A stretch of DNA of 64,000 bases from Lachnospiraceae bacterium (GTDB lineage: Bacteria; Bacillota; Clostridia; Lachnospirales; Lachnospiraceae), in the NCBI GenBank assembly GCA_024698705.1, contig JAILQX010000027.1, forward strand, positions 1-64,000. Direction: 5' to 3'. Below are positions 33,100 through 49,454 of this stretch, piece after piece; positions within the stretch are counted from its first letter, which is position 1; every line of letters begins with the position of its first letter. Below the pieces are notes generated by a model. That model had not been told where the DNA came from. It saw only the letters and a list, made by a program, of their open reading frames with translations, and ran no database searches. The position numbers and the translations under genes are program-made.

Positions 33100-33291
33100 A
33101 AATGATTCTCCTCAGACATATTAATAAAATGATACACGAGAAATATTGTAGCCTAATTGCCTTAAATTTGCAATCTGACGATTTGGGGTGAAATCCCGCC
33201 GTATTTAGTATAAAATACTAAAGTAGATGTACATATTGGATTACAAAGGGTGATTTATGATAATATATTTCAGACAGGAGAATTGCCCCAT

Positions 33292-35076
33292 ATGAAAGAA
33301 CTTGAATATCCGTTTGATGCGGAGGAAATACTTAGAAAGAAAAAATCCTATAAGAAACAGCTTCTCTCACAGGACCTGAATTGGATGGACAAGAAGGTCG
33401 CCATCCTGGGCGGGCAGACTACGGAAAATATTAAGCTCATGCTTGAACTGTTTCTCCTTAATAACGGCATAAGACCGCAGTTTTACGAGTCCGAGTACAA
33501 TAAGTACTATGAGGACGGGATGTTTCCGAATCCCGAACTTGAATCATTTGCGCCGGACATAATTTACATATGTACCTGCATAAGAAATATAACCGATCTT
33601 CCCTCAATGAGTGATGGGCCCGTGCGGGTTGAAGATAAACTCGAACAGACCTTTATGCGGTTTACGGGACTTTGGGACAGGATTGCCGATACCTATAAAT
33701 GCACAGTGATCCAGAATGATTTCGAACTGCCTTATTATCGTGTGCTCGGCAATATGGATGCAAGCGATATCCACGGCAGGGTTAATTTTGTGACCAGGTT
33801 AAACTGTAAGCTGTATGAATATGCCGTAGCTCATGAGAATTTTCATATTTGCGGTGTTAATTATATCTCGGCAGCATACGGACTTGACAAATGGTCGGAT
33901 CCGTTCTTCTGGCATATGTACAAATACGGCATGGCTCTCCCTGCGATACCGTATCTGGCATTCAACGTGGCAAATATCATAAAATCCGTTTACGGGAAAA
34001 ATAAAAAGGCTTTGAGCCTTGATCTTGACAATACCCTTTGGGGAGGGATCGTCGGAGATGACGGAGCGGACAATATCGAAATAGGCCAGGAAACCCCGGT
34101 GGCCCAGACCTACAGTGAGTTCCAGAGCTACTTAAAGCAGCTTGGAGACCGCGGTATCATGCTCACCGTCAATTCAAAGAATGATGAAGAAAATGCACTT
34201 GCTGGTCTGAACAGACCGGACAGTGTACTTAAGCCGGACGATTTTGCGGTCATAAAGGCCAATTGGGAGCCGAAGAGCAGCAATCTCATAAAGACGGCAG
34301 AGGAGATGAACATTCTGCCGGAGAGTTTTGTGTTTGCGGATGACAATCCTGCGGAAAGAGCGATCGTCGAGGGACAGATACCGGGTATCGCAGTGCCTTT
34401 GCTCGAGCGACCTGAGCATTATGTTTCAGCGATAGACAAAACCGGATATTTTGAGGCGACAACGTTGTCTGACGATGATATCAAGCGCAATGAGATGTAT
34501 ATGCAGAATGCAAAAAGGACAAAGCAGCAGGCTGCATTTGAAAATTATGAGGACTATCTCATTTCCCTTGAGATGCAGGCCGAGATCAGACCGTTCGTGC
34601 CCGAATATATGTCCAGGATAGCCCAGCTTACCAACAAGAGCAATCAGTTCAATCTGACCACAAAAAGATATACGCAAAGCGAGCTGGAAGAGATCGCAGG
34701 CGATAAGGAGCATATCACGCTGTACGGTAAGCTTGTCGATAAATTCGGCGATAACGGTGTGGTAAGCGTTGTGATCGGCAAAAAAGAAAATGATTTACTC
34801 CACATTGAGCTTTGGCTCATGAGCTGCCGTGTGTTAAAGAGAGATATGGAATACGCCATGATGGACAGGCTGATAAAGCTTGCGAAGGACAGGGGTATAA
34901 CAAAGCTTGTCGGATATTATCATCCGACAGCCAAGAATTCCATGGTAAGGACATTCTACGAGACCATGGGCTTTACGAAGACGAAAGAGGATGAGAAAGG
35001 TAATACTGTCTGGGAGTACCGCATTCCCGACGATTATGAAGATAAACAGCACGTGATCGCATACACCATAGGATGA
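33292..35076 (+). CDS. FkbH-like HAD-IIIC / GNAT protein
   Basis: 594 residues from the ATG at 33292, which has GGAG 11 bases before it; an upstream in-frame GTG at 33250 lacks a spaced ribosome site. The N-terminal 230 residues look like a degenerate SGNH module. Next comes a HAD-IIIC phosphatase-like domain (ALSLDLDNTLWGGIVGDDG, about residue 245; FVFADDNPAERAIVE). The C-terminus has a GNAT-like domain (LTNKSNQFNLTTKRY, IELWLMSCRVLKRDMEY, NSMVRTFYETMGF). FkbH proteins are known for loading glycerate from 1,3-bisphosphoglycerate onto acyl carriers in polyketide routes. No carrier protein or ketosynthase is nearby, so a surface-decoration role is a guess. It precedes an SGNH hydrolase. Confidence 0.85.
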   Translation: MKELEYPFDAEEILRKKKSYKKQLLSQDLNWMDKKVAILGGQTTENIKLMLELFLLNNGIRPQFYESEYNKYYEDGMFPNPELESFAPDIIYICTCIRNITDLPSMSDGPVRVEDKLEQTFMRFTGLWDRIADTYKCTVIQNDFELPYYRVLGNMDASDIHGRVNFVTRLNCKLYEYAVAHENFHICGVNYISAAYGLDKWSDPFFWHMYKYGMALPAIPYLAFNVANIIKSVYGKNKKALSLDLDNTLWGGIVGDDGADNIEIGQETPVAQTYSEFQSYLKQLGDRGIMLTVNSKNDEENALAGLNRPDSVLKPDDFAVIKANWEPKSSNLIKTAEEMNILPESFVFADDNPAERAIVEGQIPGIAVPLLERPEHYVSAIDKTGYFEATTLSDDDIKRNEMYMQNAKRTKQQAAFENYEDYLISLEMQAEIRPFVPEYMSRIAQLTNKSNQFNLTTKRYTQSELEEIAGDKEHITLYGKLVDKFGDNGVVSVVIGKKENDLLHIELWLMSCRVLKRDMEYAMMDRLIKLAKDRGITKLVGYYHPTAKNSMVRTFYETMGFTKTKEDEKGNTVWEYRIPDDYEDKQHVIAYTIG

Positions 35077-35152
35077 TTTATTTTGCAAAATATGGTAAAT
35101 TGGTAATATGGGTCGAGAATTCAGAAGAAAAATCACCAGAGGAATAGTGAAA

Positions 35153-36499
35153 ATGTGGATGAGACACAGACTGCTGATGATCGTGGCTATCATAGCCATC
35201 ATCGTCGATATAGTGGGTGTCTGTGTTATTGTCCGTTACACTAAGCCCGCGGATAATATCGCGGTTCCCGAAGAGGTCGCCGGCAATGAAGTGGCTCCTG
35301 TTGCCAATGTGGACAATTACTCGCATATCTTCGGCGGGGAGGGTTCATCAAAAAAGAAATCCACATCAAAGGTTGTAAGCACTGTAAAGGAAGACGGTAC
35401 GGTCGTTGAAGAAGAGGCGCCTACCGTGCTTGAATATAATGCATCTACAAGACCGGGCTATATGAACAACTGTTATTTCCTGGGAGATTCCCGTACGGTT
35501 GCGATGGTCAGCTACGGTTTCATTTCAGATTCACATGTACTGGCCAAGGTAGGTATATCGCACACCTCAGTGGAATCCACAACATTCATGCAGAATTCGG
35601 GAAAACAATATACGGTCAAGCAGTATCTTCAGAATGTAAAACCGCCGGTTGTCTACATTTGCTATGGCGTAAACGGAATGAACGGTATCTCTGAAGAAAA
35701 ATATGAGAAGACATATACGGACCTGGTGGAGCATATCATCGATATGGCTCCGGACAGCAAGATAGTGCTGATGTCCATCTGGCCTGTTGACGATAACGGC
35801 AGGTACAAGGGCTCCGTTAAAAACGAATGGATAAACACATACAATGATTTTCTTCTCGCGCTGGCCGAATACGAAGGAATATATTATCTGAATGTTTCTT
35901 CCGTGCTTACCGATTCCAACGGCTCGATCAAGCGCGAATTTGATTCGGGAGACGGTCTGCACTACAAGGCATCAGCCTACAATACGATCATAGACTATAT
36001 CATGCACCATCCCGTAAAGGGTATATCCGATGAGGGTGAATTCAAGGTGCACTATGTCAAGCCTTCGGGTGAATTCAAGACGGTCATGACCGAGAAGCCG
36101 AAGCTGCCGGATAACGTCGTCGAAACACAGGAACCTGAGACACCCGAGATCCTGCCCACACCGACACCTACCGTCGGCGTAACTGTGACTGTGGCTCCGC
36201 CACCGGCGCCCGTGCTGCCTTCGCCGTCACTCTCACCGAGCCCTACCGCAAAGCCGACTGCAGGGGTTACGGATGCGATAACTCCGGAAGTTAAGCCGAT
36301 TGAAACACCGGCACCGACTGAAACGCCGTCGCCCACACCGACCCCGACCGAACAGCCGACTGAAGAGGTTACACCTGAGGTAACTCCGGAAGATAATCCG
36401 ACTGAATTGCCGGGACCGACCGCTACGCAAAGTACTGAAAGCAGCGAGACCGAGAGTAACGGTGGGTCAGGCAATAACGACAATACAACGGCTCCGTAG
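35153..36499 (+). CDS. Membrane-anchored SGNH hydrolase with Pro/Thr-rich tail
   Basis: 448 residues from 35153, chosen because AGAGGAA is correctly spaced; the earlier ATG at 35108 lies inside a likely -10 box (TAATAT 35104-35109). The N-terminal HRLLMIVAIIAIIVDIVGVCVIV is a signal-anchor. The SGNH domain has CYFLGDSRT (catalytic Ser), YGVNGMNG (Gly/Asn block) and DGLHYKASAYN (Asp-His). From about residue 320 the chain is a low-complexity Pro/Thr/Glu tail that probably spans the wall. The stop at 36497 seems premature: another frame continues with similar composition to 36564. It may act on acyl groups of a surface polymer. It follows the FkbH-like gene by about 75 bases. Confidence 0.85.
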   Translation: MWMRHRLLMIVAIIAIIVDIVGVCVIVRYTKPADNIAVPEEVAGNEVAPVANVDNYSHIFGGEGSSKKKSTSKVVSTVKEDGTVVEEEAPTVLEYNASTRPGYMNNCYFLGDSRTVAMVSYGFISDSHVLAKVGISHTSVESTTFMQNSGKQYTVKQYLQNVKPPVVYICYGVNGMNGISEEKYEKTYTDLVEHIIDMAPDSKIVLMSIWPVDDNGRYKGSVKNEWINTYNDFLLALAEYEGIYYLNVSSVLTDSNGSIKREFDSGDGLHYKASAYNTIIDYIMHHPVKGISDEGEFKVHYVKPSGEFKTVMTEKPKLPDNVVETQEPETPEILPTPTPTVGVTVTVAPPPAPVLPSPSLSPSPTAKPTAGVTDAITPEVKPIETPAPTETPSPTPTPTEQPTEEVTPEVTPEDNPTELPGPTATQSTESSETESNGGSGNNDNTTAP

Positions 36500-36602: not shown

Positions 36603-37949
36603 ATGAACCACGAAAACAAAAGTAAGTTAATTAGATCACCGATAACGTATATAATTGGCGCAGGCTTTGCTTTGCGCCTATTGTACGTTTTATTCTCGAC
36701 CATATATGAGAGACAGTATGATATAGGTGCGATAGATCTCGATGCCGGGCATACGGTTTCGGGAGGACATTTGGCTTATATCCAGTACCTGTATGAGAAT
36801 CTCAGATTGCCGGATGTCGATCCGACCACGGTATATCAGTTTCATCATCCGCCGCTACATCATGCAATCTCGGCATTATGGATGCATATAGTCGGTATAT
36901 TTGTGAAAAGCAGCGACGTAATAGAGGAATCAATGCAATTCGTTCCTTTCGTATGCTCGATCGTTATCCTCATCATTGCATCAAAGCTGCTCACACAGCT
37001 TGGAATAAAGGGCAGGGCACACGATCTTGTCATGGTTATCGTTGCTTTTCATCCTGCGCTTATTTTATTGTCCGGAAGTGTCAATAATGATTGTATGGCA
37101 CTGATGTTCACATTGCTCTGCATATACAGGGCACTCGAGTGGTACCGTGAGAGAACGATGAAGAATATCTGCCTGACGGCGCTCTGGCTGGGACTCGGTA
37201 TGTCCACAAAGCAGAATGTGGCCGAACTTGCTCTTCCGCTGGGGCTCATGTTCTTAATCGTCCTCATTCAGACGATCAGACAGAAAGATAATATCCGTCA
37301 GCCGATCATCCAATACATGACATTTCTTGCAATAAGCGTTCCCACGGGAATGTGGTTCTATGTGAGGAATCTTGTAAAATATGACATGAGCATGCTGTGG
37401 GTATATGAACTTTCCGAGGACTCATGGCAATACACCGGAAATGTGCCGGTGATCAACAGATTTTTATGGCCCGTTCCGGCGGAGATGCTGGAAAATATAA
37501 AGAGTTTTAAGATCGGATGCGGATATAATGTCTGGATGCAGCTGATGAGGACCTCTGTCCTCGGTGAATGGGATATGGGCAGTGTAGGCAGGATCATAAA
37601 GCTTGTTGCCGTATTGCTCATGCTCGCGGGAGCGATTCTTGCCATCTCGGCATTTATCGGATATGTCCGCGGGTTTGTCTTTGGGACAAAGTTTAAGGAA
37701 TACAGAGTGTTTTACACAGCCGCATATCTGACGACAATGGTATGCTATCTCATATTTGCATACAATTATCCGCAGGAGTGCAGCATGAATTTCAGATATA
37801 TAGAGGTGGCTCTGTTCTTGCAATCACCCGGCCTGGCCGTGCTTTTTGATGAAGTTAAGTCAAAAGCATTTAAGGTATCGTTTTATACGGTTTTGGGCGG
37901 TTTTGCGATACTGAGCGTTATAATGTGCGGAGTATGGTGTCTTCAGTGA
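36603..37949 (+). CDS. GT-C (ArnT/PMT-like) membrane glycosyltransferase
   Basis: 448 residues with about ten membrane segments. It begins with a short cytoplasmic end and LRLLYVLFSTIYERQYDIGAIDLDAGH, the first extracytoplasmic loop with acidic residues typical of GT-C enzymes that use polyprenyl-phosphate sugars. YENLRLPDVDPTTVYQFHHPPLHH matches the LP...Y..HPPL block of the GT39-like group. GLGMSTKQNVAELALP and WFYVRNLVKYDM are further family-like blocks. It overlaps the next gene, so the two are probably made together. The acceptor is unknown; neighbours suggest a wall polymer or protein on the outer face. Confidence 0.82.
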   Translation: MNHENKSKLIRSPITYIIGAGFALRLLYVLFSTIYERQYDIGAIDLDAGHTVSGGHLAYIQYLYENLRLPDVDPTTVYQFHHPPLHHAISALWMHIVGIFVKSSDVIEESMQFVPFVCSIVILIIASKLLTQLGIKGRAHDLVMVIVAFHPALILLSGSVNNDCMALMFTLLCIYRALEWYRERTMKNICLTALWLGLGMSTKQNVAELALPLGLMFLIVLIQTIRQKDNIRQPIIQYMTFLAISVPTGMWFYVRNLVKYDMSMLWVYELSEDSWQYTGNVPVINRFLWPVPAEMLENIKSFKIGCGYNVWMQLMRTSVLGEWDMGSVGRIIKLVAVLLMLAGAILAISAFIGYVRGFVFGTKFKEYRVFYTAAYLTTMVCYLIFAYNYPQECSMNFRYIEVALFLQSPGLAVLFDEVKSKAFKVSFYTVLGGFAILSVIMCGVWCLQ

Positions 37950-40900
37950 CAGGGAAAAGAAGGACAAACAGCATATTGGTTTTCGGGATAGCGATGCTAT
38001 CCCTTTTGGTCGTTTATGCCCTTGAGGGTTTTTATCCCTTTGGCAGAGGCTCTATCGTTGCTTTGGATCTTTATTCGCAATACACTCCCATACTTTACAG
38101 ATTTTATGACGTCGTAAAGGGCGTTAAAAACATTGCCGTCGACTTTCATATCGGCGGAGGCAGAGGTGTTTTCAATGACACACTTTGTGAACTGATAAAT
38201 CCGTTCAATTACATTCTTCTGTTGTTTCCGAGAGAAAAACTATACCTTGCAGTGAACCTGCTCATGCCGCTTTATGGCGGTGCGGCTTCGCTTACGGCTT
38301 ATTTTGCCCTGGATCGTATATGCGAAAAAGAAGGTCGCAGGAGCGGAGCACTGCAGATGATCCTGGCGCTTGCCTATGGCATGTCTTATTATGTCGCATA
38401 TCAGTATGAGATCATCAGATGGATGTATATCGTGGTCTTATTTCCGTTGTATTATCTTGCACTCAGACGCCTGATCGAAGAGGGAAGATCGGTGGTTGCC
38501 ATCCTGCTGTTGGCTTACATTCTTATGTTAAACGTGCAGTTCGGCTTTCAGATATGCCTTTTTACGGCGGTCTATGCCACCTGCAGGATATGGGAAATGA
38601 AAAAACAGGGAAGCGGCGAAATTGCGGCTGTCAGTCTGCGGATAATAATGCTGGCGATAACGTCAGTGCTCATTTCCGGCATATCCGTTATACCCAATAT
38701 CATAAATCTTGCGGACAGTGCGAGGTCGGTGCAGACGGGTTCGATCCTTACCGTCATGATGCATCACGGACTTGACAACATCGCGGAGCGCTTTCTGGAA
38801 ATATCAAGCCCGATCACGTTGGGCATCATAATTGCCGCCGTCATTGTTCTGAGACGGGATCTTAAGAAACTGATCAGCGCAAATATCGGATCGATAGTAT
38901 GCCTTCTTATCATGCTCTTAACCGTTATATCGGAGCCTGCAAACCTTATGTGGCACCTGGGTTCATACCAGTGCTTTCCCGTGAGATACGGATATATCGT
39001 ATTGTGGCTGCAGATACTTTTGTCTGACAGGCTCGCCGGCAGTATAAATGATCCTCTGCAGAGCGATACGGAGCAGACTGACAAAAAAGAAGAGTCCTCT
39101 GCGAAGATAAAGAACATCATAAACATATGTGTTTCGATGATATGCGTTCTGCCTGCTCTTGCGGCATGTGTGTATATCTTCAAAAACAGGCTTAAGTTTG
39201 CCCAGGCATTTGCAACGCTTGATATAAGCGTGGTCTGCCCGAGGGAGACTTTGGCACTGTATGTCATCCTTATAGCGGATGCGGCGCTTGTTGCGGTCAT
39301 ATTTGCCATGGGAAAGAAAGCATGGAACAAGACGGCGATGATCATGATATGCGTTCTGGCCGGAATGTCAATTGAACTGGCTGTATTTCTGCCGCAGTCA
39401 TCGCCTGCAAGAGCAGCCAATGAAAAAGCATTTGAAGATATGACAAAGACAGTTGTAAGTGAAAAAAGCGAGTGGTACACGGGACATGCTGCCGATAATG
39501 ATGAGTGGCCGAGGAACGCGGCGCTGATCACCGGACAATACTCAATGACGAGTTATATGCCTTCAGGAGAAGGATTGAAATATGCTGCCGCCATGAAAAA
39601 CTTAGGATACGAAACTCCGTGGATAGCGGTTACCAGCAACGGCGGGAGCGAGGTTTCCGACAGATTTCTGGGGATAGGAAATCCGGTGACGGGAGCACCG
39701 GCATTTTCCGCAGACGCATTTAACAGGATCAACGGCATATATGATATGGATACGGATCGTTATGTTCCGTTTTGGTATGACAATAAAGGCGGTAACATCG
39801 GTATAAAGAATGACGGAAGTTATGATGCGGTCATCCTTCCCGTGGCTTATGTCAGAGGATGGAAATGTCGCGGCGGAGAGTTGTTTGCTGCCCTTGACGG
39901 TTTTGTAGGGATAAAGCCGGAGGGGGGAACGGATGACATCATCATCTCATATCACACCCCGGGACTGGGAGCGGGGATCGTACTAAGCGTTCTGGGACTC
40001 ATCCTGATGGCGTTTATGATACGCGGGAAAGAAACCAGGACAAACAAAGCGGCTGTATATATTTACAGGACGGCCGTGATACTTTTGGTCATCGTCATTT
40101 ATATTTTGCCGAATCTCGGTATGGCTGCATACATGGGAGCCAAGGCATTGGGACATGATTACGGGGATGCACTGGAATCATTTGCAAAGAAGAACACCTT
40201 CGACAAGCCATACGTCCTGCTTTCCGAGCAGATGGAGGATGACGGACTCCATGTTCTCATCGGCCGGGATAACCTCATGATGAGCGAAAAGGTGAAGATA
40301 AGTGCATCAAGTATTGAAAATAACAGCTTTAAGCCTTCAAAGGTCGCAGACGGCGACAGGTCAAAAGCTTCCAGATGGTCATCGGCAAATGACTGGGATA
40401 ACAATGAGCATTTGCTTACGGTCGAATTTGAAGGTGTAAGAAATATCAGCGCGGTCAAGATATACTGGGAAAGAAATAACGCCTGTGCATACACCGTAGA
40501 GATCTCTGATGACGGAAAGGAATGGAGCGTTGCAAAAGAATTTGATTCACAGCCGCAAAGCAATCCTCAGACGATCTATTTTGAACGGAATATAAGCGGA
40601 AAGTATCTCAGACTTCATGTTACGGACGTCGTTAAGCACGAAGAGGATGCCACGCTTTATTACCAGAATGTATCCGTTAATGAGCTTGAGGTATATTCAG
40701 ACGAATGTGACAGCTTTGTGATTGCAAAACCCAAACTTACGGCAGGGTATGACAGAGAGATACCCGTTCCCGAGGTCATGGAAGGATACAGTCTGTATTT
40801 CGGCGGTATCAATTACGGTAATCTGGCAGTGGACGGACGGTTTGCCGATACCGTTTCGGATGTGGAGATTAATCTGGGATATATCTTAAGATGCGGCAAT

Positions 40901-42334
40901 TATTCATGGGATCTTCAGGGCTTTGACCTTGTCCTGCCGGCTTCGGAGCCGCTTGGAACGGTAGTTAAGTCCGATATCGGAAGCTATGATACAGAGATTA
41001 AAATGGTGGTTAAGCCCGATATCGGCAGCCATGATACAAGGATCAAAACGGCCGGTGCCATGTATCCCAAGGAATGGAAGCCCGGAAACGGCATATATGA
41101 GATCCCGGATTACGAAGAGGCCATAGTCGTTCTGGACAGGGGAGAGTTTCTGCCGGGTACCAAACTGAGTACGACGAAAGCGGGACTCGGCAGGGAAGGC
41201 TACGAGATCGTGATAAGTGACGGGAACATCAGTATTTGCGCAGAGACCGAAGAAGGCTGTATCAGAGCCGCCACAACATTAAAGCACATGCTTGCCAACG
41301 AAAAGGGTAAGCTGCCTTGCGGTACGCTCAGGGACTATCCGGAGTATGAGGTGCGTGGTTTTGTGCTGGATGTTGCCAGACGACCGATCGAAACGGATAT
41401 GCTTTATGCGATCGTTGATGATATGGCTGACAATTATATGAACACCCTTCAGCTGCACTTCAACGACAATGACATCATATCGAGCAGCGGTTATGACAAG
41501 ACGGTTGCAGGTGCGAGGGAACTTTACAGTGCGTTCAGGCTGGAATCGGATATCGAAGCAAACGGTCAAAAGCTTACAAGCGAAGACCTGTATTATACGG
41601 ATGAAGAGATAAAAGCATTGACAGAGTATGCTGAGGCGCGCGGAGTGAGGATAGTTCCGGAGATAGATACGCCGGCACATTGCATGTCGCTCACCAAACT
41701 CTTCCCCGAAATGGGTTATGATGCTTATCCGGAAATGGCGGATACGCTGGACGTATCAAAGCCCGAGGTACTTGAACTGACAACATCCATCTGGAGAGGT
41801 TATCTGACAGGAGGTCTGTTTGACGAATGCGAGACCATCCATATAGGGGCGGATGAATTCTATGGTGACAATGAAGCCTATGCCGCATACCTGAACGGCC
41901 TTGTCGGCGAACTGAGGAGCATCAGCCCCGACAAAAACATACGTCTGTGGGGAAGCTTCACATATAACGATGTCGATATGTCCGGAATGGATAACGACCT
42001 TGAGGTCATGATCTGGAATCCGTTCTGGGCGGATCCCGAAATGGTCTACGGATCCGGAATGGGTGTGATCAATTGTCTCAACAAAGATCTGTACATAATA
42101 CCCGGAGGAGGCAATGACAGGCTGGATATCGATCATCTTGCAAATGAGTGGGAGCCCAATGTCTTTAAGGACGGGGAGTGTGACGAAACCCTGCCTGCAT
42201 GGAGTGATCGGATGCTCGGAGCATGCTATTCGATGTGGAACGATCATTACAGGCTTGGAAATGCTCCCGATGAAGCGGGACTGATGGAACGAATAGAAGA
42301 ACCGATGAGTATCATTTCACGGAAATTATGGTAA
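37925..42334 (+). CDS. YfhO-like membrane protein fused to discoidin and GH20 domains
   Basis: One continuous 1469-residue frame. Residues about 15-500 are a multi-span YfhO-like GT-C module (PFGRGSIVALDLYSQYTPILYRFYDVV; FHIGGGRGVFNDTLCELINPFNYIL). About 480-660 is a soluble loop, followed by two more membrane spans near 670-735. About 788-928 is an F5/8-type C (discoidin) domain (KVADGDRSKASRWSS, VKIYWERNNACAYTVEIS). A duplicated linker follows (1013-1042), then a GH20 beta-N-acetylhexosaminidase-type region: YEVRGFVLDVARRP (about 1140), VRIVPEIDTPAH, and the catalytic pair D1310-E1311 in HIGADEF. The start is uncertain: GTG 37925 or ATG 37934, neither with a good ribosome site, coupled to the preceding gene. 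YfhO enzymes add sugars to wall polymers and GH20 removes hexosamines. Confidence 0.88.
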   Translation: MRSMVSSVTGKRRTNSILVFGIAMLSLLVVYALEGFYPFGRGSIVALDLYSQYTPILYRFYDVVKGVKNIAVDFHIGGGRGVFNDTLCELINPFNYILLLFPREKLYLAVNLLMPLYGGAASLTAYFALDRICEKEGRRSGALQMILALAYGMSYYVAYQYEIIRWMYIVVLFPLYYLALRRLIEEGRSVVAILLLAYILMLNVQFGFQICLFTAVYATCRIWEMKKQGSGEIAAVSLRIIMLAITSVLISGISVIPNIINLADSARSVQTGSILTVMMHHGLDNIAERFLEISSPITLGIIIAAVIVLRRDLKKLISANIGSIVCLLIMLLTVISEPANLMWHLGSYQCFPVRYGYIVLWLQILLSDRLAGSINDPLQSDTEQTDKKEESSAKIKNIINICVSMICVLPALAACVYIFKNRLKFAQAFATLDISVVCPRETLALYVILIADAALVAVIFAMGKKAWNKTAMIMICVLAGMSIELAVFLPQSSPARAANEKAFEDMTKTVVSEKSEWYTGHAADNDEWPRNAALITGQYSMTSYMPSGEGLKYAAAMKNLGYETPWIAVTSNGGSEVSDRFLGIGNPVTGAPAFSADAFNRINGIYDMDTDRYVPFWYDNKGGNIGIKNDGSYDAVILPVAYVRGWKCRGGELFAALDGFVGIKPEGGTDDIIISYHTPGLGAGIVLSVLGLILMAFMIRGKETRTNKAAVYIYRTAVILLVIVIYILPNLGMAAYMGAKALGHDYGDALESFAKKNTFDKPYVLLSEQMEDDGLHVLIGRDNLMMSEKVKISASSIENNSFKPSKVADGDRSKASRWSSANDWDNNEHLLTVEFEGVRNISAVKIYWERNNACAYTVEISDDGKEWSVAKEFDSQPQSNPQTIYFERNISGKYLRLHVTDVVKHEEDATLYYQNVSVNELEVYSDECDSFVIAKPKLTAGYDREIPVPEVMEGYSLYFGGINYGNLAVDGRFADTVSDVEINLGYILRCGNYSWDLQGFDLVLPASEPLGTVVKSDIGSYDTEIKMVVKPDIGSHDTRIKTAGAMYPKEWKPGNGIYEIPDYEEAIVVLDRGEFLPGTKLSTTKAGLGREGYEIVISDGNISICAETEEGCIRAATTLKHMLANEKGKLPCGTLRDYPEYEVRGFVLDVARRPIETDMLYAIVDDMADNYMNTLQLHFNDNDIISSSGYDKTVAGARELYSAFRLESDIEANGQKLTSEDLYYTDEEIKALTEYAEARGVRIVPEIDTPAHCMSLTKLFPEMGYDAYPEMADTLDVSKPEVLELTTSIWRGYLTGGLFDECETIHIGADEFYGDNEAYAAYLNGLVGELRSISPDKNIRLWGSFTYNDVDMSGMDNDLEVMIWNPFWADPEMVYGSGMGVINCLNKDLYIIPGGGNDRLDIDHLANEWEPNVFKDGECDETLPAWSDRMLGACYSMWNDHYRLGNAPDEAGLMERIEEPMSIISRKLW
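40961..41050 (+). repeat. 45-base tandem duplication inside the fusion gene
   Basis: Two 15-codon units in the linker between discoidin and GH20 regions (residues 1013-1027 and 1028-1042). Both encode VVK-DIGS-DT-IK patterns. It looks like a recent in-frame duplication that lengthens the linker. Confidence 0.85.
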
Positions 42335-42507: not shown

Positions 42508-43053
42508 ATGGAAGTCGTTAAGAAGATCTTTAAGGAAACAATAGGATATGTGATCGTATTTCTTGTTACATTTATCCTTTTCAGATATATATTTGTCATT
42601 TCCACTGTCATGAGCGGTTCCATGGAGCCTACGATCATGACGGGCAACACGGCATTCTGCAACAGGCTGGCATATCTGTTTTCGGAACCCGAGAGGGGGG
42701 ACAAGATCATATTCTTCTCGGATGAAGCAGGTACGTATTATTTTAAGCGGATAATAGGATTGCCCGGAGACGTGGTGAGCTTCGAGGACGGGAAGGTCCT
42801 TATAAACGGAACGGTCCTCGAAGAGGATTATATACAGCCGGGTGTAAAAACCGAGTGTTCGGAGACATTTACGGTTCCGGAGGGGCATATATTCCTGCTC
42901 GGTGACAACAGGGAAAATTCATATGATTCCAGGTTCTGGAAAGAGCCGTACATAAACTGTGATAAGATCACCGGTAAATTCATGGCGCAGATCAATTTCA
43001 GCTACGAATTTGATATAAAACAACCGATCCGTAAAAAACTTAAAGGAAAATAA
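42508..43053 (+). CDS. lepB: Signal peptidase I
   Basis: Membrane serine protease that removes signal peptides, 181 residues. One N-terminal span (IGYVIVFLVTFILFRYIFVI) is followed by the catalytic Ser in SGSMEPTI (about residue 36) and the catalytic Lys in YYFKRIIGLPGD (about residue 77). The C-terminal GHIFLLGDNRENSYDSRFW block completes boxes D and E. Size and single span fit the SipS-type of Gram-positive bacteria. It lies between surface-glycan genes, suggesting general export and not a dedicated substrate. A terminator follows directly. Confidence 0.95.
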   Translation: MEVVKKIFKETIGYVIVFLVTFILFRYIFVISTVMSGSMEPTIMTGNTAFCNRLAYLFSEPERGDKIIFFSDEAGTYYFKRIIGLPGDVVSFEDGKVLINGTVLEEDYIQPGVKTECSETFTVPEGHIFLLGDNRENSYDSRFWKEPYINCDKITGKFMAQINFSYEFDIKQPIRKKLKGK

Positions 43054-43085
43054 AAAACGTTGCCGTCATCGGCAGCGTTTTTTAA
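43053..43085. terminator. Bidirectional terminator after lepB
   Basis: A stem AACGTTGCCG with CGGCAGCGTT (one mismatch, four-base loop) is bordered by A-runs and T-runs on either side. It serves lepB on + and the convergent glycosyltransferase on -, whose last codons and stop lie within the hairpin. Confidence 0.85.
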
Positions 43086-43998
43086 TGATATATCTCGGTC
43101 TTGCTTTTATCTCATCGTAGATCCTTGCAATATACACACCTATGATACCCAGACTCAGCATTATGATCCCGCTTGAAAGAAGTATGAGCGTAATGACTGT
43201 TGTAAATCCTCCGAGAGCCCTTCCCGTAAAATAAGTGAACAGCGCTTCACCGCCGATGAACAGCGATGCGATGATGAAGATCAACCCCATCGCGGTAACG
43301 AGCTGCAGAGGCTTTGATGAAAAATTGATCATATTGGTTATCGCATATTTTGCAAGTGATCCGATTGACCACTTGGATGAACCGGATTGCCTGTCGGCGA
43401 CCTCAAACGGAACTTTTACCGATCTAAAGCCTATCCAACGGGAAAGGCCTCTGAAAAACGGTGCCCGTTCGGGCATTTCAAGCAGTGAATCCACGGCACT
43501 CCTGTCAAGAAGCATGAAGTCTGAAGCATCCTTAAGATCTATATTTGACAATCCGCAGATCAGTTTATAGAACAGGTTTGCCATGGCTTTGTGGAACACA
43601 TTTTCGTGTCCGCGAGATGATTTGACGCCTTCAACCACCTCGTAGCCCTCTTGCCATAGTCTGATCATTTCCGGAATGACGGCAGGCGGGTGCTGAAGAT
43701 CGCAGTCCATTACTATGCAGCAATCACCTTCGGCTTCCTTAAGGCCTGCAAATATCGCAGCTTCCTTTCCGAAATTTCTTGAAAATGATATCCCTCTGAG
43801 ATCGCTGCAGTCGGGATCGGCTGCCATTTCTTCGATGATCTCAAAGGTCCTGTCTTTCGAGCCGTCGTCCACAAATATGATCTCATGTTTTATATTAAGA
43901 GGTTCAACAACCTCCGTTACGGCTTTATATGCTGTTTTTATAAGATCCTGCTCATTGTATGCAGGTATGATGATTGATAATGCCCCGTCCATACCCAT
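43066..43998 (-). CDS. Polyprenyl-phosphate glycosyltransferase (CsbB/GtrB-like, GT2)
   Basis: About 310 residues. A GT2 domain comes first: LSIIIPAYNEQDLI, HEIIFVDDGSKDRTFE, SRNFGKEAAIFAGLKEAEGD, VMDCDLQHPPAVIPEM (DxD-type metal site), then DASDFMLLDRSAVD. Two C-terminal membrane spans follow (PLQLVTAMGLIFIIASLFIGG and VITLILLSSGIIMLSLGIIGVYIARIYDEIKARP), exactly the CsbB/GtrB plan. Such enzymes load a sugar onto undecaprenyl phosphate inside the cell for use by a GT-C transferase outside. Start is ATG 43998 or 43992, neither with a clear ribosome site. The neighbouring YfhO genes are the likely users, as in the Bacillus CsbB-YfhO pair. Confidence 0.9.
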   Translation of the reverse strand: MGMDGALSIIIPAYNEQDLIKTAYKAVTEVVEPLNIKHEIIFVDDGSKDRTFEIIEEMAADPDCSDLRGISFSRNFGKEAAIFAGLKEAEGDCCIVMDCDLQHPPAVIPEMIRLWQEGYEVVEGVKSSRGHENVFHKAMANLFYKLICGLSNIDLKDASDFMLLDRSAVDSLLEMPERAPFFRGLSRWIGFRSVKVPFEVADRQSGSSKWSIGSLAKYAITNMINFSSKPLQLVTAMGLIFIIASLFIGGEALFTYFTGRALGGFTTVITLILLSSGIIMLSLGIIGVYIARIYDEIKARPRYIIKKRCR

Positions 43999-44124
43999 AA
44001 GTTTATGACAAGTGAAAACAATAATCAATATTTTTCACGCTATACGGGTAAAATTCGGCAGTATTTATATGGTATGCGGGTCAAAATGATGATAATATGA
44101 TTAAGAAGGAAAAACGTTGGTATC

Positions 44125-46731
44125 ATGTATGCTAAGGATGTAAAAGAAGGAAAATCTCATAACTTATATACGCATGCCCTTTTGGCTGCATTGACGGTCA
44201 TATGCATGTTTGCGGTGTATCTTATCATTTGCCGTATCGCGCCTTTCGGTGACAGGACGTGGATGATATTTGACATGAAACGTCAATATGCCGATTTTTA
44301 TTCTTATTACAAAACATATTTCACAGGCAACGATATCTTATATTCATTTGCCATGTCTCTGGGATCGGGAGCAGTCGGTTTCTTTACCTACTACCTTTCG
44401 AGCCCGTGGCTTTTGCTAACCCTTTTTTTTGATAAAGCGCACATACCGGAAGCGGTTACCCTTATGACGACCGTCAAACTGGGCCTTGCCGCGTTCAATG
44501 CAAATCTGTTTCTGGATCATTACAGATACGACTGCAGTCTTGAAAAGGAAGACTATCCCGACAGGAGCATGACGGTTGTTTTTGCGATAAGTTATACCTT
44601 CTGTGCTTTTATCATTTCCAATATCATAAATCCTATGTGGCTCGATGTATTTTATCTGATGCCGCTTGTGATGCTCATGCTTGAGAGGCTGCTCGCCTCA
44701 AAGGGAAATATCGGTTATGTTCTCAGCCTTGCGTTCATGCTGCTCTGCAATTATTATATCTCTTTCATGGTATGCATTTTTATCGTGATGTGGGCGGTCT
44801 ACAGATGTATGATCAAGGGTAAAGGCATAAGATCGCTTGTAAGGACCGGCCTTTGTTCGTTGTGGGCGATCGCCGTGGATGCACTGCTCATGCTGCCAAC
44901 ATTTCTGGAACTTGCAAACAGTCCCAAGGATATAGTTAAACTCGGACTTAAGCTCACGAAGGGCAATCTGTCGGTTCCGACGGTATTGTCGAAGACATTT
45001 TTCATGGCATATGACAGTTATCAGACGATGACGGGAACACCGCTTGTGTATGCGGGAACCCTGGTCACGATCATGACAATTCTTTTTTATCTGAACAAAA
45101 AGATCCCTCTTGACGAAAAGCTGGGCATGGGAGTGATGATGCTCGTATTGATAGTCTCATTTTGCATAGACCGCATAAATCTGTGGTGGCATGCGGGTAT
45201 GGAACCCTCCGGTTATCCGTACAGGGAAGCTTTTCTTCTTGTATTTCTTGCCGTGATCTGCTCAAGCAGATGTGCGGGCAATATGGACGGGTTGAACAAA
45301 CGCAGGATAATGATCGCACTCGCTGTTGTATTGGGAATACTTGGTTATACGGCATCGGAACATTATGCTTATATGTCAAAGACGATGATCACGGCAAATG
45401 TTGTTCTCATCCTCGGTATATCGGTGCTGCTGATGCTCTGCTGCCTGTTTAACAGAGAGAGCATGTCGAGATATCTGGTAATCGTGGCCATGCTATTGTT
45501 CTGTATACAGATGCTGGAACTTACGGCAAATGCCGTTTTCATATATCATAAGCAGACATTTGATTCCGAGGAGCGGACCGGAGTCTACAGGAGAAAGGTG
45601 AGCCGCAGTGAAAGTGCCGTGAAATATATAAAAGATCATGATGATTCATGGTACAGGATGGAGAATCTGGATCCGAGAGAGCAGAACGATGCGGTGATGT
45701 ATGACTACAACGGCATCACACATTACAGTTCGGCGGGAACGCTCGATGTGAGACATTTCCTCGTCAGGCTAGGATTCAATGATGACACGCTTTATACCGA
45801 TTACGGTCGGGACAACACATGTCTGGCAGACTCTATATTAGGTATAAGATATGTGATCGACGGATCGGAAAACACCCATCCGGGTTATGAGATCATGGAT
45901 TTTAGCGGAGAAGACAGGGTGCTTAAGAATCCTTATGATCTTTCCGTAGCTATGGTCGTAAAGAATGTGAATGAAGATGAATATACAAACCCGTTTGATT
46001 ATCAGGAGGGAATTATCGGAAACATGGCCGGGGAGGAGCTTAAGGTATTTGACAGAGGCGAAGAACCGGTAAATATCTTCTACGCGGAGGACGGATCGTA
46101 TGTGGAAGAGTGCAGCTGGACGACCGCATGTGACGGTGAGGTGTTCTTCTATGCGGAAGGAATAGCCGACAGGATACAGAGCCTTGCGATCTACATGGAT
46201 GATGTATTGTTCACGGGCTATGGAAATGACAGCTGTATGAAGGTTTTAAATCTCGGATATCATGAAGCCGGAGATGAGATAGTGCTCAAGATAAAGGCTG
46301 ATTCTGAGGATGCGGATTTCGGTAAGGCAAGGTTTGTCAGTGAAGATATGGACGGACTCAGAAATGCGTATGACAGGTTGAAAGCTTCAAAAGCAGAAGT
46401 CACGGAACTCTCTTCATCAAAGCTTCTGATCACACTTCCGGAAACTGACGGAGAAGGATTACTGCTGACGATACCTTATGAGAAGAGTTGGAAAGCATAT
46501 GCGGACGGTAAGGAAGTCGGTATTGATAAGGCTTATGGTGCACTGATGTATATACCTCTTTCTCAGGTAAAGGGGACTGAAATAGAACTCAGATATATTC
46601 CGATGGGAATGAAGGCAGGCGCGGTGATAAGTATTATCGCTGTGATCATGCTTGCGGCCGATGCTGTTATTTGTTCAAAGAAGAGATCATGTGATATTCA
46701 ACATCGCGATCCCGTGAAAGAAGAAAATTAA
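44125..46731 (+). CDS. YfhO family membrane glycosyltransferase-like protein
   Basis: 868 residues. The first 470 hold about twelve membrane spans, starting with MFAVYLIICRIAPFGDRTWMIFDMKRQYADFYSYY and SLGSGAVGFFTYYLSSPWLLL, the YfhO family opening with its acidic first loop. A soluble region of about 320 residues follows (TGVYRRKVSRSESAVKYIK, YNGITHYSSAGTLDVRHFL, LGIRYVIDG), then a last span (AVISIIAVIMLAADAVICS). In Bacillus YfhO transfers GlcNAc to lipoteichoic acid. It diverges from the CsbB-like gene across about 125 bases, and its 3' end overlaps the convergent YdjC gene by 65 bases. Ribosome site is weak (AAGAAGGA, long spacing). Confidence 0.9.
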   Translation: MYAKDVKEGKSHNLYTHALLAALTVICMFAVYLIICRIAPFGDRTWMIFDMKRQYADFYSYYKTYFTGNDILYSFAMSLGSGAVGFFTYYLSSPWLLLTLFFDKAHIPEAVTLMTTVKLGLAAFNANLFLDHYRYDCSLEKEDYPDRSMTVVFAISYTFCAFIISNIINPMWLDVFYLMPLVMLMLERLLASKGNIGYVLSLAFMLLCNYYISFMVCIFIVMWAVYRCMIKGKGIRSLVRTGLCSLWAIAVDALLMLPTFLELANSPKDIVKLGLKLTKGNLSVPTVLSKTFFMAYDSYQTMTGTPLVYAGTLVTIMTILFYLNKKIPLDEKLGMGVMMLVLIVSFCIDRINLWWHAGMEPSGYPYREAFLLVFLAVICSSRCAGNMDGLNKRRIMIALAVVLGILGYTASEHYAYMSKTMITANVVLILGISVLLMLCCLFNRESMSRYLVIVAMLLFCIQMLELTANAVFIYHKQTFDSEERTGVYRRKVSRSESAVKYIKDHDDSWYRMENLDPREQNDAVMYDYNGITHYSSAGTLDVRHFLVRLGFNDDTLYTDYGRDNTCLADSILGIRYVIDGSENTHPGYEIMDFSGEDRVLKNPYDLSVAMVVKNVNEDEYTNPFDYQEGIIGNMAGEELKVFDRGEEPVNIFYAEDGSYVEECSWTTACDGEVFFYAEGIADRIQSLAIYMDDVLFTGYGNDSCMKVLNLGYHEAGDEIVLKIKADSEDADFGKARFVSEDMDGLRNAYDRLKASKAEVTELSSSKLLITLPETDGEGLLLTIPYEKSWKAYADGKEVGIDKAYGALMYIPLSQVKGTEIELRYIPMGMKAGAVISIIAVIMLAADAVICSKKRSCDIQHRDPVKEEN

Positions 46732-47534: not shown

Positions 47535-49454
47535 TTACCGTTCCTGTTCGGCGGCAGCTTTATCCTTAAGCATCTGCTTATAGGCCGCCTTCTTTTCATA
47601 CATGATCTTATCAGCCTTCTGGAAATACGTACTGAAGGATGTGGCCGAACCATGCGGAATGGTGACGACACCGACGCTCACATGAAGCTTATAGGGAACA
47701 TCCATGAGCTCGTTTTCTATCTCGATGGCCTTGTTCAGATCGGGTTCAAAGGTTTCATGACGGTTCGGATCGGTCTCAGATGTAAGGATTGCGGCAAATT
47801 CATCGCCACCGTATCGCGCTACAACCTCACCCGGAGAAATGACTGATTTGAGCGCTCTGGCAACGGCACAGAGGCAGGCATCTCCGTGATTGTGTCCGAA
47901 GGTGTCATTGATATACTTGAGTCCGTCCATGTCAACGCTGACAACACTGATATAGAGGCTTCGTCTCTTGGCCCTGTCAAGGATGAGCGTAAGTTCCTGT
48001 TCATAGCCTCTCCTGTTATTGATGCCGGTCAGGGGATCGATCAGGTACATCTTTTTGATCTCTTCCATGCCGAGATATTTCTCACGGACATTGAAATCGT
48101 CTATTGCATTACCGAGTGAAACAACATACGACTGGGTAAAATGGAAGGGCCATTCATCCTTGGGATATACCGAAACCATGTAGCCGTAGCATTTGTTCTG
48201 GCTGTGGATAGGATTTACGTAGTAGAGCATGGGCTTGGGCGTATTCATGTATTCTTCCGGAAGGATATTTCTTCTGGGGAAGGTGATATCGGGACTTTCG
48301 TAATTCTTCGAGGTATCCCTGTAGAAGATACGTTTGAGGACCATCTCCTGCGTATATTCATTGACTTTCTCAACGGGACGTTCCAATGCATGGAAAGCGT
48401 CGTCGCAGAGGCAAATATATGCATAATCGGCATAATTGTATTCGAAATAAGAATCTGCCGTATTGAGGATCGTATCAACATCAAAAGCAACCTGATAGCT
48501 GTTGTACATGAATACATTCATGTCAACACCGTAATAATGCCTGGTCAGACGTTTGAATGAGATCTCAAGATTGTCATTGCTGTCACAATGACCGCAGCCG
48601 CAGCTCTGTCTGAAAATAGGAGTCGCATTGACACGCTGTGTCTTGGGAACATTCTCACCGGTTATGGCTCTGTGCAATGTCTGCATGGCAAGCCGGCCGA
48701 ATTTGTCTATGGAAGGTTCAAGAGTGGTGACAGGTACGATGCATGTACCGGATTCATCCTCATTATCAAAGCCGGATATGCATATGTCTTCGGGAATGCG
48801 TATACCTCTGGATACCAGTTCCTCGATAAGAGCCGTAGCCATGAAATCATTGGCGCAGACGATGGCCTGCGGCATCTTTTCGCGCTCGACCGTAAAGAAA
48901 TCTGCGGCTTCCTTACATTGATTCTTCCAGTAATTGCCGTAGAATACCATGTCGGAATTGACTTCCAGACCTGCCTCGAGCATTGCCTCCTCATAGCCGC
49001 GGTAACGCTCCCTGGCATCCTGAAGATCCCAGCGGCCCGTCATGTGGCAGATATCCGTGAAGCCGTGCTTCTCTATAAAATGCTTTGTCATGCCCTTTAT
49101 GGCCTCGCGGTCATCGAGCATGATATCGTAAAAACGTTCCGATTCGCCTTTTAAATATACGACCGGGCAACGTGCCTTGGCACTCAGGTAGTCATATACG
49201 ATCTTCGGCATATTGTCTATATTGAACAGTGTTTCATCAACAATAAAGCCCGCAAATGCATCAAGCACAGGTATTTTGTACACGCTTATCTCACCCTCGG
49301 CATACAGCAGTATACCGCGGTCATAAGTTCCGTAATTTGCAAATACAAACACATCATAATCGTGCTTGACAGCTTCCTCATATATATTGCGGACCAGGAT
49401 AGAAGAGTATGTAGCATCCTGTTCACCTACGATAAGACCTATTTTTTTTCTCAT
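47535..49454 (-). CDS. LacI-type sensor domain fused to GGDEF diguanylate cyclase
   Basis: 639 residues. Residues 1-285 are a periplasmic-binding-protein-like sugar-sensing domain of the LacI regulator type (KIGLIVGEQDATYSSILVRNIYEEA; HMTGRWDLQDARERYRGYEEAML; AIVCANDFMATALIEELVSRGIRIPEDICISGFDNE). There is no helix-turn-helix before it and no signal peptide, so it should be cytoplasmic. A middle region of about 170 residues looks like a GAF-type sensor. The GGDEF domain comes last (DPLTGINNRRGYEQEL, VDMDGLKYINDTFGHNHGD, VARYGGDEFAAIL), with an intact active motif and no clear RxxD inhibitory site. It probably converts sensing of a small ligand, likely a sugar, into cyclic di-GMP. Confidence 0.9.
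   Translation of the reverse strand: MRKKIGLIVGEQDATYSSILVRNIYEEAVKHDYDVFVFANYGTYDRGILLYAEGEISVYKIPVLDAFAGFIVDETLFNIDNMPKIVYDYLSAKARCPVVYLKGESERFYDIMLDDREAIKGMTKHFIEKHGFTDICHMTGRWDLQDARERYRGYEEAMLEAGLEVNSDMVFYGNYWKNQCKEAADFFTVEREKMPQAIVCANDFMATALIEELVSRGIRIPEDICISGFDNEDESGTCIVPVTTLEPSIDKFGRLAMQTLHRAITGENVPKTQRVNATPIFRQSCGCGHCDSNDNLEISFKRLTRHYYGVDMNVFMYNSYQVAFDVDTILNTADSYFEYNYADYAYICLCDDAFHALERPVEKVNEYTQEMVLKRIFYRDTSKNYESPDITFPRRNILPEEYMNTPKPMLYYVNPIHSQNKCYGYMVSVYPKDEWPFHFTQSYVVSLGNAIDDFNVREKYLGMEEIKKMYLIDPLTGINNRRGYEQELTLILDRAKRRSLYISVVSVDMDGLKYINDTFGHNHGDACLCAVARALKSVISPGEVVARYGGDEFAAILTSETDPNRHETFEPDLNKAIEIENELMDVPYKLHVSVGVVTIPHGSATSFSTYFQKADKIMYEKKAAYKQMLKDKAAAEQER

What the first reader, a model, noticed from the sequence alone, without database searches (positions are those of the whole stretch)
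37925..42334. A single polypeptide joining a YfhO glycosyltransferase-like module to a discoidin domain and a GH20 hexosaminidase
Seen: one unbroken 1469-residue frame with YfhO-type spans, an F5/8C-type domain, a duplicated linker, and a GH20 region with catalytic Asp-Glu intact. Known: Bacillus YfhO adds GlcNAc to lipoteichoic acid, while GH20 removes terminal hexosamines. Joining writer and eraser on the outer face would allow trimming or editing of the polymer it builds, with discoidin as substrate holder. The GH20 could instead transfer hexosamine. This fusion was not recognised from known proteins.
Basis: partly seen in the sequence, partly recalled or inferred. Interest (0 to 1): 0.76.

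Follow-up and report, generated by a model that had tools for sequence, protein, structure and literature searches.

The report
Membrane sugar-transferase fused to hexosaminidase
A bacterium related to rumen species makes one long membrane protein that carries both a sugar-adding enzyme module and, probably on the same outer side, a sugar-removing one; relatives keep the two as neighbouring genes, so they probably work on the same surface sugar chain, though what that chain is remains untested.

Summary
Window 37925-42334 (+) is one 1469-aa open frame with a YfhO/GT-C module, an F5/8C (CBM32-like) domain and a complete GH20 hexosaminidase. It is not a join artefact: full-length fusions about 50% identical occur in three more genomes of the genus, plus one cut by contig ends; named copies are Lachnospiraceae MAGs. 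In three other genera, 11 genomes carry the halves as adjacent genes, YfhO then discoidin-GH20, usually behind the same PMT-like GT-C gene. The partner GH20s form one group (98/99), the partner YfhOs another (100/100), and the two trees agree beyond chance. Active-site residues are kept. Topology puts the GH20 outside (inferred). Best reading: a surface-glycan maturation enzyme that trims beta-HexNAc from, and adds a sugar to, one glycan. Substrate and activity are untested; structure prediction failed. A new architecture of known parts.

The parts
37925..42334 (+). Fusion gene, 1469 aa, GTG start
   Evidence: conserved full length in G007, G009, G010
37925..40129 (+). YfhO/GT-C module, residues 1-735: multi-span membrane enzyme with an outer domain and two final spans
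   Evidence: Pfam YfhO 167.3 bits; group of partner YfhOs 100/100; hydropathy
38066..38068 (+). Asp48 in the presumed first outer loop (ALDLYSQY), candidate catalytic base
   Evidence: invariant in alignment A2 of 27 YfhOs; kept in 18 of 18 partner YfhOs
39392..39964 (+). Extracytoplasmic domain of the YfhO module, residues 490-680
   Evidence: long loop between hydrophobic segments; side inferred
39965..40129 (+). Last two membrane segments (681-699, 717-735) with a K/R-rich loop between them
   Evidence: in unfused relatives the GH20 has its own N-terminal segment before the discoidin domain
40295..40627 (+). F5/8C discoidin (CBM32-like) domain, residues 791-901
   Evidence: Pfam PF00754 63.5 bits; best PDB matches are domains of glycan-active enzymes
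40957..41046 (+). 45-nt tandem duplication in the linker before the GH20, seen in the window's gene only
   Evidence: not in the four fused relatives
41168..41338 (+). GH20b accessory domain, residues 1082-1138
   Evidence: Pfam PF02838 36.6 bits
41345..42331 (+). GH20 catalytic domain, residues 1141-1469
   Evidence: Pfam 82.9 bits over 1141-1312; PDB 7ezt/6jqf match to residue 1469
41852..41857 (+). Acidic pair D1310-E1311 (GADE motif)
   Evidence: kept in 17 of 17 partner and 20 of 20 orphan GH20s aligned
36603..37949 (+). PMT-like GT-C glycosyltransferase, overlapping the fusion by 25 nt; conserved upstream partner
   Evidence: Pfam PMT/PMT_2; relatives directly upstream of the partner YfhO in 14 of 17 genomes where that neighbour can be read
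43066..44028 (-). PgfS-like GT2, likely maker of a polyprenyl-phosphate sugar; neighbour, not shown to serve the fusion
   Evidence: NF047588 279.4 bits, cut-off 500
44125..46731 (+). Second, full-length YfhO (868 aa), outside the GH20-partner group
   Evidence: Pfam 506.8 bits; tree

Best explanation
A membrane-embedded surface-glycan maturation enzyme. The N-terminal YfhO/PgfM-type GT-C module takes a sugar from a polyprenyl-phosphate donor and adds it, at the outer face of the cell membrane, to a surface glycan or glycoprotein (inferred from the family). The discoidin domain holds that glycan, and the GH20 domain, tethered to the last membrane span on the same outer side, removes a terminal beta-linked N-acetylhexosamine from it. 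Most likely the two steps are sequential on one glycan (trim, then replace or extend) and not the making and breaking of one bond. The system is a three-part cassette, PMT-like GT-C, then YfhO, then discoidin-GH20, whose last two genes are fused in one Lachnospiraceae genus. Shown: the fusion, its conservation, the unfused arrangement in other genera, co-inheritance and kept active-site residues. Inferred: the outer location, and that both act on one glycan. Not shown: donor sugar, acceptor, either activity.
For: Complete fusion genes in 4 genomes of one genus. In 11 genomes of three other genera the halves are adjacent, same strand, same order. In G360, G1112 and G1114 a GH20 start codon overlaps the YfhO stop by 4 nt; in G150 the two genes share a frame with one stop codon between them. 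17 partner GH20s (5 fused, 11 adjacent, 1 in the same genome on another contig) form one group, 20 orphan GH20s lie outside (98/99). 18 partner YfhOs form one group, 20 other YfhOs lie outside (100/100); one of the 18, G001, ends at a contig end before any GH20 could be seen. 8 of 14 splits are shared between the trees; shuffled labels give 0.25 on average, and 0 of 1000 shuffles within the unfused rows were as high. Active-site residues kept. The fusion is the only GH20 found in its own 96%-complete genome. A hydrophobic segment is called in 10 of 12 unfused partner GH20s (G1110 and G1111 fall below the threshold), and G1108 has a lipobox-like LAGC. In the one fused relative whose downstream genes I scanned with that set, G009, they are a nucleotide-sugar dehydratase type, a DegT aminotransferase, a GT28/DUF354-like protein and an ABC transporter, and in G010 phosphonate-type genes.
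Against: No activity, donor or acceptor is known. In G1109 both genes exist but on different contigs, so adjacency is not obligatory. In the genus of G150, 11 of 13 genomes gave a related GH20 but no partner YfhO, and none lies near it in the 9 of these 11 that I fetched. Neighbouring genes that are merely inherited together would also give agreeing trees. The distribution is narrow: one family in the samples searched. 14 of 20 genomes of the window's genus show no match.
Confidence: 0.45

Rival explanations
1. Writer and eraser of one bond: the GH20 removes the very HexNAc that the YfhO module adds, so decoration is reversible.
For: Both modules are on one chain with active-site residues kept. 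B. subtilis YfhO puts GlcNAc on LTA (PMC7389260, passages). A retaining GT-C has been suggested, with AftB as precedent (PMC11127046, passages).
Against: Many structurally characterised GT-C enzymes invert (PMC12041525, passages); a beta polyprenyl-phosphate donor (recalled) would then give an alpha product, which GH20 does not cleave (recalled). A futile cycle would need control, and I saw none.
Confidence: 0.15
2. The GH20 is a glycan scavenger for diet or host sugars, and the YfhO module merely anchors it or has an unrelated job.
For: Related GH20 proteins without a YfhO match occur in 13 of 397 sampled genomes of the family, many with discoidin domains and long extra regions. The closest solved relatives are beta-N-acetylhexosaminidases and lacto-N-biosidases.
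Against: Partner GH20s are a separate group from the 20 orphans in the tree; a multi-span enzyme with its conserved Asp kept is an odd anchor; the pairing is found in four genera; some neighbours are glycan-synthesis genes.
Confidence: 0.2
3. Carrier rescue: the GH20 cleaves stalled polyprenyl-phosphate-beta-HexNAc donor at the outer face, returning the lipid carrier when the acceptor runs out.
For: The donor bond would be beta (recalled), the anomer that GH20 accepts. Cells need such relief: UshA is reported to free UndP from UndP-GlcNAc in B. subtilis (PMC11898649, passages).
Against: UshA acts on the cytoplasmic face and resembles alpha-beta hydrolases. GH20 cleavage of a lipid phosphosugar is not known to me, and a glycan-binding discoidin domain would be needless.
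Confidence: 0.1
4. The GH20 works as a transglycosylase, moving HexNAc between surface glycans.
For: GH20 enzymes use a retaining, substrate-assisted route that allows transfer (recalled); the site residues are kept.
Against: I saw nothing in the sequence that points to transfer over hydrolysis.
Confidence: 0.07
5. Assembly or join artefact.
For: The window lies in a draft assembly of 54 contigs.
Against: Same architecture at about 50% identity in independent assemblies G007, G009, G010 and, cut by contig ends, G014.
Confidence: 0.005

Closest known systems
YfhO of the CsbB-GtcA-YfhO LTA/WTA glycosylation systems (Pfam PF09586)
   Same: Pfam family, conserved Asp, many membrane segments, outer domain; the genome also holds a PgfS-like GT2 and two GtrA-family matches
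   Different: Best Pfam stretch covers only the N-terminal half of the profile; carries discoidin and GH20; separate group from 20 other YfhOs
PgfM1/PgfM2 of the S. mutans pgf operon (NF047589, NF047590)
   Same: Best NCBIfam matches of the YfhO part; the pgf operon modifies the surface proteins Cnm and WapA (PMC5856776, abstract and passages)
   Different: 52.8 and 44.9 bits against cut-offs of 1400 and 1500
GH20 beta-N-acetylhexosaminidase, PDB 7ezt/6jqf
   Same: GH20 match to the last residue, D-E pair included; the profile match also covers the region between discoidin and GH20
   Different: A chain of 727-737 residues deposited without a glycosyltransferase part
Lachnospiraceae discoidin-GH20 proteins without a partner YfhO
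   Same: Discoidin before GH20 in most of those examined; GH20 30-44% identical
   Different: No partner YfhO in the fetched surroundings of L060-L068 and L119-L127 (L081, L086, L087 were not looked at that widely); outside the partner group; several over 1400 aa

Membership tests
YfhO (PF09586), GT-C fold | Profile match above the curated cut-off | tested here: met
   167.3 bits against 28.5
YfhO (PF09586), GT-C fold | Conserved acidic residue in the first outer loop | tested here: met
   D48 invariant in the 27-row alignment; kept in 18 of 18 partners; the loop's side is inferred
YfhO (PF09586), GT-C fold | Match over the full length of the profile | tested here: inconclusive
   best stretch covers positions 2-448 of 835; a second stretch passes but its place is not shown
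YfhO (PF09586), GT-C fold | GT-C fold | tested here: inconclusive
   profile search of solved structures gave only two designed helical proteins at E 0.1; structure prediction could not be completed
YfhO (PF09586), GT-C fold | Sugar transfer from a polyprenyl-phosphate sugar | not testable with these tools
   needs an assay
Glycoside hydrolase family 20 | Catalytic and GH20b domains above cut-off | tested here: met
   82.9 and 36.6 bits against 22.3 and 26.1
Glycoside hydrolase family 20 | Asp-Glu pair and pocket Arg/His/Trp/Tyr (roles recalled) | tested here: met
   R1144, H1252, D1310, E1311, W1342, W1364, Y1390, W1438 in 17 of 17 partner GH20s
Glycoside hydrolase family 20 | Beta-HexNAc release | not testable with these tools
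   needs an assay
NCBIfam GlcNAcase equivalog NF041654 | Score above cut-off | tested here: not met
   26 bits against 1000
F5/8C (CBM32-like) domain | Profile match above cut-off | tested here: met
   63.5 bits against 28.2
F5/8C (CBM32-like) domain | Sugar binding | not tested
   best PDB matches are domains of glycan-active enzymes
Multi-component transmembrane glycosylation system (GT2 + GtrA + GT-C) | GT2 and GtrA-family protein present in the genome | tested here: met
   GT2 43066-44028; two GtrA matches on contig C17
Multi-component transmembrane glycosylation system (GT2 + GtrA + GT-C) | Those parts serve this YfhO module | tested here: inconclusive
   the GT2 is beside the second YfhO; no relative of it was found next to the other cassettes
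PgfM1/PgfM2 equivalogs | Score above the NCBIfam cut-off | tested here: not met
   52.8 and 44.9 bits against 1400 and 1500

The most novel reading that the evidence does not exclude
A single-chain outer-face glycan editor: the GH20 strips a beta-HexNAc cap, possibly one set by the cassette's PMT-like GT-C, and the YfhO module puts another sugar in its place. [quoted passage not shown]
Probability: 0.3. Interest if true: 0.8.

Novelty: new variant of a known kind. Interest (0 to 1): 0.6.

Why it matters
[quoted passage not shown] A conserved, co-inherited pairing, and in one genus a fusion, of a surface glycosyltransferase with an exo-hexosaminidase gives a concrete, testable candidate, and names a PMT-like GT-C as a likely third partner. 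Even if the GH20 acts elsewhere, the fusion and the adjacent pairs suggest that the two enzymes share a place, and probably a substrate, at the membrane.

Tried and rejected
Join artefact: rejected by independent relatives. Anchor-only YfhO: disfavoured because the Asp is kept in 18 of 18 partners and R354 is invariant in the 27-row alignment; my simple pattern for the WH...R motif missed 5 of 18 partners, which I did not inspect further. Linker duplication as a conserved feature: rejected, not in the four fused relatives; Tandem Repeats Finder missed it, the repeat finder found it. A single-protein scan of genome contigs found no relative; the alignment scan found four. The profile search of solved structures for the YfhO part gave nothing useful.

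Papers: YfhO with GH20 and YfhO with hexosaminidase gave 0 papers; discoidin/hexosaminidase/glycosyltransferase/fusion/Lachnospiraceae gave 0. One search gave 1 and one search gave 2, seen as listings only. One search gave 52 papers with three of four terms, 10 listed, none of those 10 with the GH20 term. This covers only the held open-access library. I recall, and did not find in the passages read, the alpha anomer of LTA GlcNAc and the beta anomer of the lipid donor.

Limits of the counts: in the broad searches the tables show at most two first-look candidates scored per genome, so a second gene can be missed. The GH20 tree held 37 rows: 17 partners and 20 orphans chosen from more orphan hits; left out were among others G166, G184, G350, G388, G466, G566, G579, G686, G766, G891, G1119, G1125, G1127 and the partial G1113. 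The YfhO tree held 18 partners and 20 other YfhOs, also a selection. Both trees are rooted at the midpoint for drawing only, so 'group' means one side of a branch.
Full report
What is there. The frame at 37925-42334 (+) is 1469 codons long, begins with GTG and overlaps the upstream PMT-like gene by 25 nt. Pfam finds YfhO (20-492), F5/8C (791-901), GH20b (1082-1138) and GH20 (1141-1312), all above cut-off. The GH20 match runs to the last residue in PDB 7ezt/6jqf at E 9e-64. The discoidin domain is closest to domains of a glucanase/chitosanase, a hyaluronidase and the O-GlcNAcase NagJ.

Conservation. Among 61 genomes searched first (own included), G007, G009 and G010 hold a full fusion about 50% identical to the window's, and G014 holds it in two contig pieces; in G001 the contig ends within the YfhO part. 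Of the 20 held genomes of the genus, own included, 6 have it, counting G014 and G001, and 14 show no match; many of the 14 are incomplete drafts. An assembly join is not a credible explanation.

Unfused form. In 397 sampled genomes of the family, three others (G022, G150, G360) carry the halves as separate adjacent genes. Searching their genera added eight: 8 of 13 genomes in the genus of G360 and 2 of 13 in that of G150 have the adjacent pair, and the genus of G022 holds only G022. That makes 11 genomes, each with YfhO first, GH20 second, same strand. In the genus of G360, G1109 has both genes on different contigs, G1113 only a partial GH20 on a short contig, and three have no match. In the genus of G150, 11 genomes gave a related GH20 but no partner YfhO; I fetched 9 of these 11 and none has one nearby. 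In G360, G1112 and G1114 an ATG of the GH20 overlaps the YfhO stop by 4 nt; in G150 both genes share a frame with one stop codon between them. A relative of the PMT-like gene lies directly upstream of the partner YfhO in 14 of the 17 genomes where that neighbour can be read, counting G007 and G010, where only a C-terminal part was seen; it is three genes away in G1106 and not found there in G1111 and G1114; in G150 the contig ends.

Outside these genera. Samples of the order (392 genomes), class (391) and phylum (388) listed YfhOs alone and GH20s alone, no further adjacent pair beyond G360 and no other fusion; 295 relatives of G022 gave only the pairs of G022 and G150 again. These are samples with at most two candidates scored per genome, at E 1e-30 or 1e-60.

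Co-inheritance. In a tree of 37 GH20 domains the 17 partner ones (5 fused, 11 adjacent, G1109) form one group at 98/99 and the five fused ones one group at 100/100. In a tree of 38 YfhO modules the 18 partners form one group at 100/100. For the 17 genomes with both, 8 of 14 splits are shared; shuffled labels give 0.25 on average and at most 4, and shuffling only the unfused rows gives 4.35 and at most 7, 0 of 1000 as high as observed. So the two modules have travelled together. Common descent of neighbouring genes would give this too; the fusion and the overlapping start and stop codons argue for more than neighbourhood.

Are both halves enzymes? Asp48, Gly79 and Arg354 are among the invariant columns of 27 aligned YfhOs, and the Asp is kept in all 18 partners. 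In the GH20, R1144, H1252, D1310, E1311, W1342, W1364, Y1390 and W1438 are kept in 17 of 17 partners and 20 of 20 orphans; their roles are recalled. The partner group differs from most orphans at a few positions such as Y1190 and L1200, which may reflect a different substrate.

Which side is the GH20 on? A hydropathy scan called 11 segments and may have missed some in residues 36-161. It shows a long loop at 490-680, then segments at 681-699 and 717-735 with a 17-residue loop holding five K/R, then the discoidin-GH20 tail. If Asp48 and the 490-680 domain are outside, as expected for this family, the tail is outside too. Among 12 unfused partner GH20s a hydrophobic segment is called in 10 (G1110 and G1111 fall below the threshold); G1108 has a LAGC lipobox and G1112 a near one. 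Both lines agree, but this is inference; structure prediction could not be completed.

What does it do? The multi-component glycosylation systems use a GT2 that loads a polyprenyl phosphate, a flippase and an outer GT-C (PMC8035078, passages). The window has a GT2 beside a second, full-length YfhO at 43066-46731, and the genome two GtrA matches. The fusion's own donor is unknown. Downstream of the fusion G009 has a nucleotide-sugar dehydratase type, a DegT aminotransferase, a GT28/DUF354-like protein and an ABC transporter; G007 and G014 have frames of the same lengths there, not scanned apart from one set; G010 has PEP mutase and other phosphonate-type genes. G150 and G1123 have an SH3/GDSL-like protein next to the GH20, its GDSL score in G1123 just below the cut-off. 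This speaks for synthesis and decoration of a surface glycan. The fusion is the only GH20 found in its genome, which does not look like a specialised HexNAc scavenger.

The writer-eraser idea. [quoted passage not shown] If the lipid donor is beta, as recalled for CsbB-type enzymes, the product is alpha and a GH20 should not remove it. The GH20 could still remove a different, beta-linked HexNAc from the same glycan, or act on the beta donor itself. B. subtilis has a reported relief enzyme for stalled UndP-GlcNAc, the cytoplasmic-face UshA (PMC11898649, passages). I rank trimming of the acceptor glycan first and give own-product erasure and carrier rescue lower odds.

Known or new. I found no paper that holds YfhO together with GH20 or hexosaminidase (held open-access library only). 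The parts are known families; the architecture and the conserved cassette are, as far as these searches reach, undescribed. The review PMC8035078 names active removal of glycosyl residues as an open question (section 11), which is why the finding deserves follow-up.

Noticed in passing
window 47535-49454 (-): A 639-aa protein joins a LacI/PurR-type sugar-sensing domain (Peripla_BP_3), without a DNA-binding domain in the Pfam result, to a GGDEF diguanylate cyclase: perhaps a sugar-responsive cyclic-di-GMP maker.
   Followed up: partly
window 30180-31289 (+): One frame joins DUF5131 (3-214) and DUF4186 (258-364).
   Followed up: no
window 33250-36499 (+): FkbH-type protein followed by a GDSL hydrolase just upstream of the PMT-like gene, perhaps acyl decoration of a glycan; GDSL-like genes also lie next to the GH20 in G150 and G1123.
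   Followed up: partly
window 42508-43053 (+): Signal peptidase I gene is the next gene after the fusion; no relative of it showed among the neighbours in the other cassettes.
   Followed up: no
L022 3448-7198 (G010): PEP mutase, a TPP enzyme and an aminotransferase just downstream of the fusion: likely phosphonate decoration genes.
   Followed up: no
L022 11551-12294 (G010): Only a 247-aa C-terminal part of the PMT-like gene was found upstream of this fusion; it may be a decayed or misassembled copy.
   Followed up: no
L119-L127 (genus of G150): A second discoidin-GH20 subgroup (8 rows in the tree, 100/100) without a partner YfhO nearby.
   Followed up: partly
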